A DNA stretch of 64,000 nucleotides, from assembly GCA_021200315.1 (NCBI GenBank), contig JAJQGU010000053.1:1-64000 (forward strand), written 5' to 3'. This stretch comes from Akkermansiaceae bacterium (GTDB lineage Bacteria; Verrucomicrobiota; Verrucomicrobiia; Verrucomicrobiales; Akkermansiaceae). Of this stretch, positions 26,866 to 30,883 are shown one piece after another. The notes beneath the pieces are model-generated. The model was not told the DNA's origin, made no database searches, and worked only from the letters and a program-made list of their open reading frames with translations. How positions within the stretch are numbered: the stretch's first letter is position 1; each line of letters opens with the position of its first letter. The position numbers and the translations under genes were made by a program.

Positions 26866-28290
26866 CTATTTCGTAGGGGAAAAAGCGTCTTTCAAGTGCG
26901 GTGAGACCAGGTTTCTGGCTGCCCGGTGAGCCTCTGGGGGAACATATTCTTCCCAAGACGGGTCGTTGGATTCGATCATTTTCTGAATGTCGCGGGGGGT
27001 TTGCAGCAGATATTTCTGGTTGAAGTAGGGAACCTCGACAATGAGGCCGTTTTCGATAAGATGCTGGTAGAGATACTTGTACTTGGCAGGGGCCATGAAT
27101 GTCTTGGCCGTGACAAATTCGCCCGTTCTCCTATTGATCCACGGGGTGACGTAGAGCTTGGTCTTATTCAGGAAAGTGCGTCCTATAGAAGAGAGTATGC
27201 CGCCGGGCAAGTCTTCCACCCATTTATCCTTGAAGAGTTCATTGAGCAGACCAATGGAAAGCGCAATGGCCACGGGTTCATTGGTGTATTGGTTGAGCAG
27301 GGCGGAGATGCGGTGGAAGTGCGTCATGTTGGTGACGAGCACCGTTTTGCCCAAGGCGGCAAGACTGTCGACGCGGTCGAGGAAGTCGAGATGGTCGACT
27401 TCATCGCCGCGCAGGAGATTGCTCATGGAAATCTCGCAGATATCGACGCCCCGCTCTTGCTGCGTCTCATTAAGAGAGGCGCGGAATTTGCTGCGCACGC
27501 TGTCCATCATTTCGAGATGGATGTTGCAAAGAGGACGAAAACTGCCGCGCATAAGCACGATAGGTCGTTTGTAGAGGACGTCTGCCGCCTGAGCCACCGA
27601 ACCGTCCGGCTGAAAGAGAGTGGAATCGGACAGGCCGGACTGCACCAGCTGCAGTGCGAATAAACGGTTGTCCACCATCTCGAATCCATGTCCTTCAAAG
27701 CGTACGACGTCGATTTCGAGGTGGCCGGGAGGAATGTCGTCGGCGAGGGATTCGATGAAAGACTGCATCTGATCCATCTTGTAAAAAACCGCATAGATGA
27801 GATTGACGCCGATTGCGCCCAGATCGCGCATTTGAGAAGCATGGTTGGGCTCTTTCAGCCGTACATGCACGATGAGATCAGAGTGGGGGGAGCCGGGCTG
27901 GAGTTGAAAGCGGATGCCGAGCCATGCATTCCAAGGCCCATTGTCGCGATAGCCCTTGATTTTCGCCGTATTGCAAAAGGCAAAGAAACGCGTGTTCTCT
28001 CCGCGCTTTTCGCCGAGGCGGTTGATCAGCTGCGTGAATTCATAATCCAGCATTTGCCGCAAGCGCGCTTCGGATACATAGCGGCGAACCGAACCATAGA
28101 GTGTGTCGCTGACGGTCATGTCGTAAGCGGAGATTGTCTTGGCCACGGTGCCGGCCGCGCCCGAGGTGCGGAAAAACCAATTGGCGGTTTCCTGGCCGGC
28201 GCCTATTTCAGCAAAAGCCCCATATATGGACGGGTCGAGATTGATTTGGAGCGCTTTTTCTTGAGGGTCACTCAGCTCTTTGGTATCCAT
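26866..28290 (-). CDS. Conserved protein of unknown function
   Basis: A 474-residue soluble protein with no signal peptide or membrane segment. It begins QINLDPSIYGAFAEIGAGQE and contains ISAYDMTVSDTLYG, which I recall from a widespread family that databases annotate inconsistently (for example as a nicotinate-nucleotide adenylyltransferase). I cannot confirm any such activity: no HxGH nucleotidyltransferase motif is seen. It overlaps the PBP gene by 23 bases and precedes queF by 6, so it is clearly part of the operon. Its role is unknown. Confidence 0.7.
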   Translation of the reverse strand: MDTKELSDPQEKALQINLDPSIYGAFAEIGAGQETANWFFRTSGAAGTVAKTISAYDMTVSDTLYGSVRRYVSEARLRQMLDYEFTQLINRLGEKRGENTRFFAFCNTAKIKGYRDNGPWNAWLGIRFQLQPGSPHSDLIVHVRLKEPNHASQMRDLGAIGVNLIYAVFYKMDQMQSFIESLADDIPPGHLEIDVVRFEGHGFEMVDNRLFALQLVQSGLSDSTLFQPDGSVAQAADVLYKRPIVLMRGSFRPLCNIHLEMMDSVRSKFRASLNETQQERGVDICEISMSNLLRGDEVDHLDFLDRVDSLAALGKTVLVTNMTHFHRISALLNQYTNEPVAIALSIGLLNELFKDKWVEDLPGGILSSIGRTFLNKTKLYVTPWINRRTGEFVTAKTFMAPAKYKYLYQHLIENGLIVEVPYFNQKYLLQTPRDIQKMIESNDPSWEEYVPPEAHRAARNLVSPHLKDAFSPTK

Positions 28291-30883
28291 TGTCTTGTTT
28301 GTTCAGTTCTGGAGGTCGGACGGGGATGCGGATGTAGGATGGCACGGGAAGAGGCAGCAGAGTGGCCTCTGTCGACGTTTCCTCGTCGGCCTCTTCTACT
28401 TCGGCGGCTGTCGCTTCAAGCGGCGTGCTGGAGATATTTTGAACCGCTCCGCTGCCGTCTTTATATTTAGGACTGAGTTTGAGATCGCAGCCATAGGGAT
28501 CGCTGCCCTCGAGCGCGGGAGACAGGGGCAGAATGGGGGCGATTGGCAGAATGCGCGAAAGGACGCGCGGTCCGCTGGCTGACATGAAATCGAGCAGGCT
28601 CGGCGTTTCCTCGCCATGGATGTTGCATGCAGGGATGGTGAGATCGCCCTTGGGCAGGTATTCCATATACGTGTTGCGCACGTAGGTGGATTTGCCGTCG
28701 CGTGTCTGGGATTCATAGCAATACATAGTAGCGCGGCGTCCCGAGAGCGCACAGATTTCGACTGCTTCCACGGTGTCGGGCATGGCGATGTCCCTGCCGG
28801 GCAGCACCTCTTCCGCCATAGTGAGCGCCGCACCGAGAACCGGGGCGCATGTGTCCGACGAAAAGGCGTTGGGATAAATGGCGCTGCGTCCGTTGACAAA
28901 GCCGATCCAAACACCGCAGGTCACTTGCGAGGTATACCCGAACAGCCAGTTGTCGGCGAAGTCATAGTTCGTTCCCGTCTTGACTGCGCCCTTGAAGCCG
29001 GGGGGCAGATGATTCTGGACGCGAATCGCCGAACCGTCCTTGAGGGAATCCTGCAGAATGGAGTGAATTTGCCACGCGATGCTGGAATCGAGCGCCTTTG
29101 TGTGGGTATAGCCGCGGCGCGCGGTTACTTGAGGAGCTTCCCAGAGAGTATTGCCGTGAGTGTCCGTGATTCTGGTGATGAAATAAGTGGATTTGAGGCG
29201 TGTCCCCATGTTGGGGAGAGCGGTGTAGGCCATGGCCATCTGCAGCATGGAGACGGGCTCGGTGCCTACGTAAATGCGGGGATAGTAGACGGGATTAGCC
29301 TCGGTGCTGCCGGGGTTGCGCTGGGGTTCTGAGATGCCGAGTTGTTTGAGAATCTCGATGAAGGGGCGGCTGCCCAAGGCGATGCCCAATCTCAGAGATG
29401 CGGATATTTTGGACTGGGAGAGCGCCTTGCGCGCGGAAACGCTGTCTTCATAACGTCCCTTTACCGTCTCGATACCCCATTCGCCAAGAATGCCTTCAGA
29501 ACCACCAATGCCGGTCAGGCGATTATCGATCGCGTCGTCTACCAGTCGTGAGGTGGGATTGTAGCCCTGCTGAAAGGCGGCCATGTAGAGCATGGGGAGA
29601 ATGGCCGTGCCGGGCGGGCGGGCGCCGTTGCGGATAATATCGTAGTTGTCGCGGGCGAAATCGCGCCCCCCATGGTAGGCCAAGATGCCTCCGGTCGAGT
29701 TGTCGAGCATGAGCACGCAACCATCGAGATATTTGTGTTTTTGTGAATCGGGTGCGTTTTTGTCCGCAAAGAGCACATGTTTGTAATCCTCGTGCTTTTC
29801 GATTTTTTCGAGCTGTTCCTTCAGGGCGGCGCCCGTGGCGTCCTGAAGCTTTTTGTCGAGCGTGGTGTAGATGCGGATGCCGGAGCTTTTGACGATCTCT
29901 TCCCCGCGCACTTTGTCTTCAAACAGGTTGATGGCCTGTTGCTCGATCAGTTTGTGGATGTGCGAGGTCTGGCGGCGGAGAGGGCGAGGATTAATCCCCA
30001 GGGGGAGGGCTTTGAGCCGTTCGGTCTCCTGATAGCTTAGATAGCCGCTGCGGCGCATGCGATCCAGCACGTCATTGCGCCACTGGACGTTGCCTTCGGG
30101 ATTCCTGATGGGGTTGAACGTCTCTGGGTTTTTGATCAAGGCGGCCAGTGACGCGGATTCGCGTACGGTGAGGTCTTTCGGCTCTTTGCCAAAATAGCCG
30201 AGAGAAGCGGCTCGAATGCCGTAATATCCACGCCCGAAGCAGATTCTGTTGAGATAGAATTCGAGGATCTGTTCTTTGCTGTACTTCTCCTCAATGCGCA
30301 TGGCCAAGAATATCTCCACAATCTTTCGCCCGTATTTGCCTTCGTTTCTGGCTTCGGCACGGCGTTCGAGATCATAGGCGTTGCGGGCCAGCTGCTGCGT
30401 GATGGTTGAGGCTCCCTGATTGGCATGGCCTCCCGCCTTGAACAATTGCAGCGCGGCGCGCGCGATCCCGACGGGGTCATAGCCCTTGTGTTCTCTGAAG
30501 CGGGAATCTTCCTGGGCGATGACGGCGTTGATCAGGTTGTCCGATATGTCTTTGAGAGGCACATAGCTGCGGTTTTCATCGAAAATGCGCCCCATTTCCT
30601 CCCCGTTTCTGTCGAAAATGATGCAGGGGCGGTCGAGGTTGTTGATGTTTTCCAGATCGAATTCTTCGGCCCATTTTTTGTAGGGTGAGGTGAAGAAGTC
30701 GAAGGCGAGCCAGCCGCAGAGAACTCCTGCGGCGGCGATGACGAGTAGCGTGATCAGCAGGCGCACGAGAAAACGGCGGAGACGCGGTGTCTTCTCTCCC
30801 CGGCCTCCCCGCCGCTGCGGATCATGTTTTCGCCGTTGAGCCTGCGCTCGCCTGCGCAGCTGGAAATCATCCAATTCATCCAT
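28268..30883 (-). CDS. Class A penicillin-binding protein with a degenerate transpeptidase domain
   Basis: An 871-residue bifunctional-type PBP: a basic cytoplasmic tail, one membrane anchor (about 37-58), a GT51 glycosyltransferase domain (about 105-280) and a transpeptidase domain (about 335-680). The GT51 motifs IAQEDSRF (E125), GASTITQQL and ILEFYLN are intact, so glycan polymerisation should work. In the transpeptidase domain the S-x-x-K motif reads T426-A-I-L429 inside PPGTAILP, so both the nucleophile serine and the lysine are replaced, and the S-x-N motif reads S491-K-I493. The KTGT motif (635-638) is kept. It therefore looks like an active glycosyltransferase with a pseudo-transpeptidase. 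It has a long C-terminal tail rich in P, E and T. Confidence 0.9.
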   Translation of the reverse strand: MDELDDFQLRRRAQAQRRKHDPQRRGGRGEKTPRLRRFLVRLLITLLVIAAAGVLCGWLAFDFFTSPYKKWAEEFDLENINNLDRPCIIFDRNGEEMGRIFDENRSYVPLKDISDNLINAVIAQEDSRFREHKGYDPVGIARAALQLFKAGGHANQGASTITQQLARNAYDLERRAEARNEGKYGRKIVEIFLAMRIEEKYSKEQILEFYLNRICFGRGYYGIRAASLGYFGKEPKDLTVRESASLAALIKNPETFNPIRNPEGNVQWRNDVLDRMRRSGYLSYQETERLKALPLGINPRPLRRQTSHIHKLIEQQAINLFEDKVRGEEIVKSSGIRIYTTLDKKLQDATGAALKEQLEKIEKHEDYKHVLFADKNAPDSQKHKYLDGCVLMLDNSTGGILAYHGGRDFARDNYDIIRNGARPPGTAILPMLYMAAFQQGYNPTSRLVDDAIDNRLTGIGGSEGILGEWGIETVKGRYEDSVSARKALSQSKISASLRLGIALGSRPFIEILKQLGISEPQRNPGSTEANPVYYPRIYVGTEPVSMLQMAMAYTALPNMGTRLKSTYFITRITDTHGNTLWEAPQVTARRGYTHTKALDSSIAWQIHSILQDSLKDGSAIRVQNHLPPGFKGAVKTGTNYDFADNWLFGYTSQVTCGVWIGFVNGRSAIYPNAFSSDTCAPVLGAALTMAEEVLPGRDIAMPDTVEAVEICALSGRRATMYCYESQTRDGKSTYVRNTYMEYLPKGDLTIPACNIHGEETPSLLDFMSASGPRVLSRILPIAPILPLSPALEGSDPYGCDLKLSPKYKDGSGAVQNISSTPLEATAAEVEEADEETSTEATLLPLPVPSYIRIPVRPPELNKQDNGYQRAE

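What the first reader, a model, noticed from the sequence alone, without database searches (positions are those of the whole stretch)
28268..30883. Class A PBP that has lost the transpeptidase serine and lysine
The SxxK position reads T-A-I-L (T426, L429), the S-x-N position S-K-I, while KTGT and the GT51 catalytic glutamates are kept. Both essential residues of the acyl-serine mechanism are replaced, so it should not bind beta-lactams or cross-link peptides. The domain is otherwise full length. It may act as a glycosyltransferase with a regulatory or peptide-binding pseudo-enzyme domain.
Basis: partly seen in the sequence, partly recalled or inferred. Interest (0 to 1): 0.65.

Follow-up and report, generated by a model that had tools for sequence, protein, structure and literature searches.

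The report
Cell-wall polymerase with dead cross-linking domain
This gene makes a cell-wall polymerase whose attached cross-linking (penicillin-binding) half has lost its active-site residues, and that loss turns out to be an old, conserved feature across much of a bacterial class (the window's own genus is probably the gut microbe Akkermansia), so it looks like a reworked non-catalytic part kept for some other job.

Summary
ORF 28268-30883 (-) is an 871-aa class A PBP. Its GT51 catalytic glutamates are kept. The SxxK columns hold Thr426/Leu429, SxN reads S-K-I, KTGT is kept. Among 124 orthologous sequences across the bacterial class, 121 have Thr at 426 and 3 have Ser. The Lys position is degenerate (L, T, F, V, H, I, Q, G, A; K in only 12), so Thr came first and Lys was lost repeatedly. 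The domain still folds as a transpeptidase (AF2 pLDDT 82; Z 41-45 to PBP1a/PBP1b) and is under purifying selection (dN/dS 0.09; GT domain 0.07). All members share an extra loop of about 12 residues beside the active site (GGxxGILGEWGxE); residue 470 is Gly with Thr426 and Ala with Ser426, without exception. Intact class A PBPs coexist. A second GT51 protein with an even more degraded transpeptidase domain lies in the same genome. The window's genus has also lost RodA (38/38 genomes) while keeping MreB. Best reading: a dedicated glycan polymerase whose transpeptidase domain is a conserved pseudoenzyme. Loss of beta-lactam binding is inferred, not shown.

The parts
28268..30883 (-). Class A PBP gene, 871 aa, GT51 plus pseudo-transpeptidase
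   Evidence: ORF; Pfam PF00912 and PF00905; AF2 model with mean pLDDT 82 and fold match to PBP1a/PBP1b at Z 41-45
30665..30781 (-). N-terminal membrane helix (residues 35-73 are one helix in the model)
   Evidence: AF2 secondary structure; sequence shows a hydrophobic stretch LLITLLVIAAAGVLCGWLAF
30056..30604 (-). GT51 glycosyltransferase domain (residues 94-276), catalytic Glu125 (30509-30511) and Glu190 (30314-30316) kept
   Evidence: E125 and E190 invariant in 73/73 orthologues
28925..29722 (-). Pseudo-transpeptidase domain (residues 388-653)
   Evidence: dN/dS about 0.09 in close congeners
29597..29608 (-). SxxK position reads T426-A-I-L429
29468..29539 (-). Clade-specific loop, residues 449-472 (DDAIDNRLTGIGGSEGILGEWGIE), insertion beside the active site
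   Evidence: absent from intact paralogues and solved PBPs; G464, G467, E468 invariant in 124/124
29405..29413 (-). SxN position reads S491-K-I493
28970..28981 (-). KTGT motif, residues 635-638, kept
   Evidence: K635 kept in 123/124, G637 in 122/124
28613..28783 (-). C-terminal region 701-757 with conserved C711, C722, C753, H756
   Evidence: dN/dS 0.026
26866..28290 (-). Downstream 474-aa gene overlapping the PBP stop by 23 bp; no Pfam or NCBIfam match; neighbour in the window's genus and near the PBP in several sister genera

Best explanation
The gene encodes a membrane-anchored peptidoglycan glycosyltransferase (GT51) of class A PBP architecture whose transpeptidase domain is a conserved pseudoenzyme. 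Shown: the nucleophile Ser is Thr, the general-base Lys is Leu and the SxN Asn is Ile; the fold is kept (predicted), the domain is under purifying selection, and the state is shared by the whole genus and family and widespread in the class. Inferred: the enzyme polymerises lipid II but neither acylates nor cross-links; its strands are cross-linked by other enzymes (the intact class A PBP on C54, the PBP1C-like protein on C40, the two class B PBPs, or the YkuD enzymes). Inferred, less certain: the dead domain serves as a scaffold or peptide-sensing module (KTGT, the carboxylate-binding strand, is kept) that couples this polymerase to a partner transpeptidase, with the GGxxGILGEWGxE loop packed over the old nucleophile.
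For: Motif columns fixed by two independent alignments. GT51 site invariant. T426 in 121/124 orthologues, Lys lost in 112/124. dN/dS of the TP domain 0.089 against 0.069 for the GT domain, so it is not decaying. AF2 model with pLDDT mostly above 90 in the TP domain and Z 41-45 to PBP1a/PBP1b. Residues 429 and 493 change together: K with N in 12/12 and T with N in 31/31, whereas Leu/Phe/His/Ile goes mostly with Ile/Val, which looks like repacking of the site with hydrophobic residues in the window's family. Intact class A PBP paralogues found in 19 of 19 further genomes examined that carry the orthologue, and in the window's genome. Seven YkuD hits in the genome.
Against: No biochemistry is available. 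Thr426 is almost invariant although a fully dead site should drift; this asks for a role of Thr (helix start, loop packing or catalysis). Three orthologues keep Ser/Lys/SxN/KTGT, and nine have Thr with Lys kept, so catalysis may survive in some branches. For one congeneric pair the TP domain evolves about twice as fast as that of the intact paralogue (0.144 against 0.063).
Confidence: 0.78

Rival explanations
1. The site is not dead but retooled: Thr426 acts as nucleophile with a new acid/base from the group-specific loop (Glu468 or Glu472), giving a Thr-dependent acyltransferase or carboxypeptidase with different substrates and low beta-lactam affinity.
For: T426 almost invariant (2 changes on the tree) while position 429 takes 23 changes. 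E468 invariant 124/124 and E472 in 123/124. Residue 470 co-varies perfectly with 426: T-G 121, S-A 3, in two separate clades. KTGT kept.
Against: In the window's family Lys and Asn of the catalytic set are replaced by Leu/Phe/His and Ile/Val, which removes the known proton path. The loop region 461-467 has pLDDT below 50, so contact of Glu468 with Thr426 is not shown. The Ser members also have the loop together with the canonical residues. The Gly/Ala swap is explained by steric packing against the Thr methyl.
Confidence: 0.1
2. The gene is a decaying class A PBP on its way to loss, made redundant by the intact paralogue.
For: Several motifs are lost; one family member (G269) shows no orthologue-level match.
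Against: Full-length open frame in more than 100 genomes, dN/dS 0.03-0.18 over all segments, class-wide age, orthologue found in nearly all sampled genomes of the genus.
Confidence: 0.03
3. The pseudo-domain specifically stands in for a SEDS partner: in this RodA-less genus the GT51 enzyme feeds glycan to the class B PBP2 homologue, with the dead domain as docking site.
For: RodA absent in 38/38 genomes of the genus by two searches while MreB is kept and an intact PBP2-like class B enzyme lies on C24.
Against: The dead domain is older than the RodA loss: other genera of the family and other families have it together with RodA. No physical link to PBP2 was tested; C24 is not adjacent.
Confidence: 0.15

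Closest known systems
PBP1A family (TIGR02074) of class A PBPs, e.g. A. baumannii PBP1a (3UDF), and E. coli PBP1b (5HLB)
   Same: Architecture TM - GT51 - linker - transpeptidase; fold over residues 85-754; GT51 catalytic residues; KTGT
   Different: SxxK is TxxL, SxN is SxI, W-x-P-x-N is replaced by W-G-x-E, extra loop of about 12 residues; score 403.8 is under the TIGR02074 cut-off of 508.75
Monofunctional GT51 transglycosylases (MGT, TIGR02070)
   Same: Would do the same chemistry: glycan polymerisation without transpeptidation
   Different: This protein keeps a whole transpeptidase-fold domain; matches TIGR02070 at 130.2 bits, under its cut-off of 182.65
Second GT51 protein of the same genome (contig C64, 627 aa)
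   Same: GT51 intact, transpeptidase fold recognisable (AF2, Z 28 to PBP1a), SxxK lost
   Different: Shorter, no Pfam transpeptidase hit at all, SxN region and KTGT also gone; sits beside the intact aPBP gene in sister genera

Membership tests
Class A PBP architecture (GT51 plus PF00905) | GT51 domain over the curated cut-off with both catalytic glutamates | tested here: met
   198.5 bits against 27; E125, E190 invariant
Class A PBP architecture (GT51 plus PF00905) | Transpeptidase domain over the curated cut-off and with transpeptidase fold | tested here: met
   58.9 bits against 22.1; AF2 fold and Z 41-45
Active-site-serine acyltransferase (functional PBP) | SxxK nucleophile and general base | tested here: not met
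   T426 and L429
Active-site-serine acyltransferase (functional PBP) | SxN motif | tested here: not met
   S491-K-I493
Active-site-serine acyltransferase (functional PBP) | KTG motif | tested here: met
   K635-T-G-T638; K in 123/124
Active-site-serine acyltransferase (functional PBP) | Covalent beta-lactam binding | not testable with these tools
   Needs a binding assay
NCBIfam TIGR02074 PBP1A family | Score over curated cut-off 508.75 | tested here: not met
   403.8 bits; the intact paralogue C54 also falls short at 466.6
NCBIfam TIGR02073 PBP1C | Score over curated cut-off 494.2 | tested here: not met
   279 bits
Monofunctional GT51 (TIGR02070) | GT51 alone, score over 182.65 | tested here: not met
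   130.2 bits and a transpeptidase-fold domain present

The most novel reading that the evidence does not exclude
A class-wide family of PBPs has exchanged the serine nucleophile for threonine together with a new invariant loop (GGxxGILGEWGxE) and works either as a Thr-dependent, beta-lactam-insensitive acyltransferase or as a non-catalytic stem-peptide sensor that gates its own glycosyltransferase.
Probability: 0.3. Interest if true: 0.85.

Novelty: new variant of a known kind. Interest (0 to 1): 0.62.

Why it matters
Class A PBPs are defined by two linked activities and by penicillin binding. Here one orthologous group, spread over many families of a bacterial class, has kept the polymerase and turned the penicillin-binding half into an apparent pseudoenzyme, with graded intermediates (Ser-Lys, Thr-Lys, Thr-Thr, Thr-Leu) alive today. 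It offers a natural test of what a transpeptidase domain does for the glycosyltransferase apart from catalysis. In the window's genus it coincides with loss of RodA, so cell elongation there must use another polymerase. I found no mention of it in the papers searched.

Tried and rejected
Chance or frameshift: rejected, the same residues occur in more than 100 genomes. SxxK elsewhere in the protein: rejected by two alignments and by the model, where residues 425-438 form the helix that SxxK starts. Decay: rejected by dN/dS. RodA loss as the cause of the dead domain: rejected as origin, because the dead domain occurs with RodA in other genera. RodA merely too diverged to be seen: tested with a profile of the sister genera's own RodA, which found only the FtsW locus. 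The genome-contig scan gave only two distant clostridial PBPs, so names of the relatives are not known. Literature searches for pseudo-transpeptidase or inactive class A PBPs gave nothing on this group. The V. spinosum essentiality paper (PMC12283558) lists ftsW/rodA, mreBC and class B PBPs as essential; the words 'class A' and 'glycosyltransferase' do not occur in its text.

Full report
WHAT IS THERE. The ORF at 28268-30883 on the minus strand encodes 871 aa starting with ATG. It has a membrane helix, a GT51 domain (residues 94-276, 198.5 bits) and a weakly scoring transpeptidase domain (388-653, 58.9 bits). phmmer against solved structures aligns ARPPGTAILPMLY with WRQPGSTIKPFLY of A. baumannii PBP1a, and a profile of 32 orthologues gives the same columns against PBP1a chains of 4OON and 3UDF. 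So SxxK is T426-A-I-L429, SxN is S491-K-I493 and KTGT is kept at 635-638. The GT51 glutamates E125 and E190 are invariant.

HOW WIDESPREAD. In the window's genus (code g1) all orthologues read have Thr at 426 and Leu at 429, with Ile or Val at 493. In the class, 83 of 237 genomes sampled carry an orthologue scoring above 820 bits, clearly apart from the next group below 700 bits, whose members that were read are intact class A PBPs (the 83 counted by hand from the table). A phylum-wide draw gave matches at E 1e-60 or better only within the class. Of 124 orthologous sequences (identical ones merged), 121 have Thr and 3 have Ser at 426. The Lys position has L 63, T 31, K 12, F 8, V 4, H 2 and I, Q, G, A once each. 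On a tree built without the motif columns, position 426 needs 2 changes, Lys/non-Lys 6, and the letter at 429 needs 23. Thr was therefore fixed early and Lys was lost several times later. The tree cannot tell whether the three Ser members are relics or reversions; two of them (L146, L148) are nested among Thr members, next to Thr-Lys ones.

THE DOMAIN IS KEPT, NOT DECAYING. In 54 close congeneric pairs, summed dN/dS (Nei-Gojobori; the pairs share branches and are not independent) is 0.069 for the GT domain, 0.089 for the TP domain, 0.026 for the region 701-757 with conserved C711, C722, C753 and H756, and 0.18 for the disordered tail. For one species pair the intact paralogue's TP domain has 0.063 where this one has 0.144, so constraint is somewhat weaker than in an active enzyme but strong. 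AlphaFold2 gives mean pLDDT 82 with most of the TP domain above 90, and the closest solved folds are PBP1a and PBP1b at Z 41-45.

A CLADE-SPECIFIC LOOP. Between the SxxK helix and SxN all orthologues carry a version of D..DNR.VMIGG..GILGEWG.E (residues 449-472), about 12 residues longer than A. baumannii PBP1a, and the canonical W-x-P-x-N is missing in 124 of 124. G464, G467 and E468 are invariant and E472 is kept in 123. Residue 470 is Gly in all 121 Thr members and Ala in all 3 Ser members. Apart from 426 and 470, only column 46, in the variable membrane helix, gives the Ser members one shared letter that no Thr member has. The simplest reading is that residue 470 packs on residue 426, the Ala methyl replacing the Thr methyl. 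That would place the loop over the old nucleophile. This is inference; pLDDT at 461-467 is under 50 and the coordinates could not be measured. Positions 429 and 493 also go together (K with N 12/12, T with N 31/31, L/F/H/I mostly with I/V), as if the core of the site had been repacked with hydrophobic residues in the window's family.

WHO CROSS-LINKS. The genome (2.22 Mb, 98 percent complete) has four GT51 proteins: this one, an intact class A PBP on C54, a PBP1C-like protein on C40 that passes the TIGR02073 cut-off, and a 627-aa protein on C64. It has two class B PBPs, FtsI on C22 in the dcw cluster and a PBP2-like protein on C24, and seven YkuD hits. In 19 other genomes with the orthologue an intact class A PBP was read in each. 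The C64 protein and its orthologues have lost SxxK, SxN and KTG altogether while keeping a transpeptidase-like fold. So the genome holds two GT51 polymerases with dead transpeptidase domains.

A LOST ROD PARTNER. All 38 genus genomes searched have one SEDS gene only (one genome shows it in two fragments), in the window's genome on the contig of the dcw cluster, whereas 45 of 46 other class members have two or more hits. A profile of the sister genera's RodA found only the FtsW locus in the genus. MreB is kept. The dead domain is older than this loss, so the two are not cause and effect, but GT51 enzymes are the only other known polymerases left to serve the PBP2 homologue.

MECHANISM. Shown: residues, predicted fold, conservation, selection, loop, coexistence with intact enzymes. 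Inferred: active glycosyltransferase, no acylation, and a scaffold, sensor or coupling role. The kept KTGT strand, which binds the substrate carboxylate in active PBPs (established knowledge), and the conserved Thr leave room for peptide binding.

COMPARISON. It has the architecture of class A PBPs but fails the sequence test for an active-site-serine acyltransferase. I found no description of this group in the papers searched; most subscription papers are not held. An earlier genome survey counted Akkermansia as having class A PBPs without remarking on the motif (PMC8406291). That the genus is Akkermansia is my inference from the group structure and genome sizes; it was not tested.

Noticed in passing
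G000 contig C64 (locus L069 1668-3548, -): Second GT51 protein with a transpeptidase-like fold that has lost SxxK, SxN and KTG; in sister genera its orthologue lies directly beside the intact class A PBP gene.
   Followed up: yes
genus of the window, 38 genomes: RodA is absent in all genomes searched although MreB is kept (and a PBP2-like class B PBP, seen in the window's genome); sister genera keep a diverged RodA.
   Followed up: partly
window 26866-28290 (-): 474-aa protein without Pfam or NCBIfam match, start overlapping the PBP stop, next to the PBP in the genus and near it in several sister genera.
   Followed up: partly
L072 1307-3442 (+): The PBP2-like class B PBP starts with what looks like a signal peptide instead of a clear membrane anchor; by eye only.
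   Followed up: no
L080 2454-4535 (G039 contig C1): A further class A PBP with the GEWG loop, T..L in place of SxxK, and W in place of the KTG lysine, in a genome that also has the normal orthologue.
   Followed up: no
L146, L148 and L056: The only orthologues with intact Ser, Lys, SxN and KTG; they may be relics or reversions of the Thr state.
   Followed up: partly
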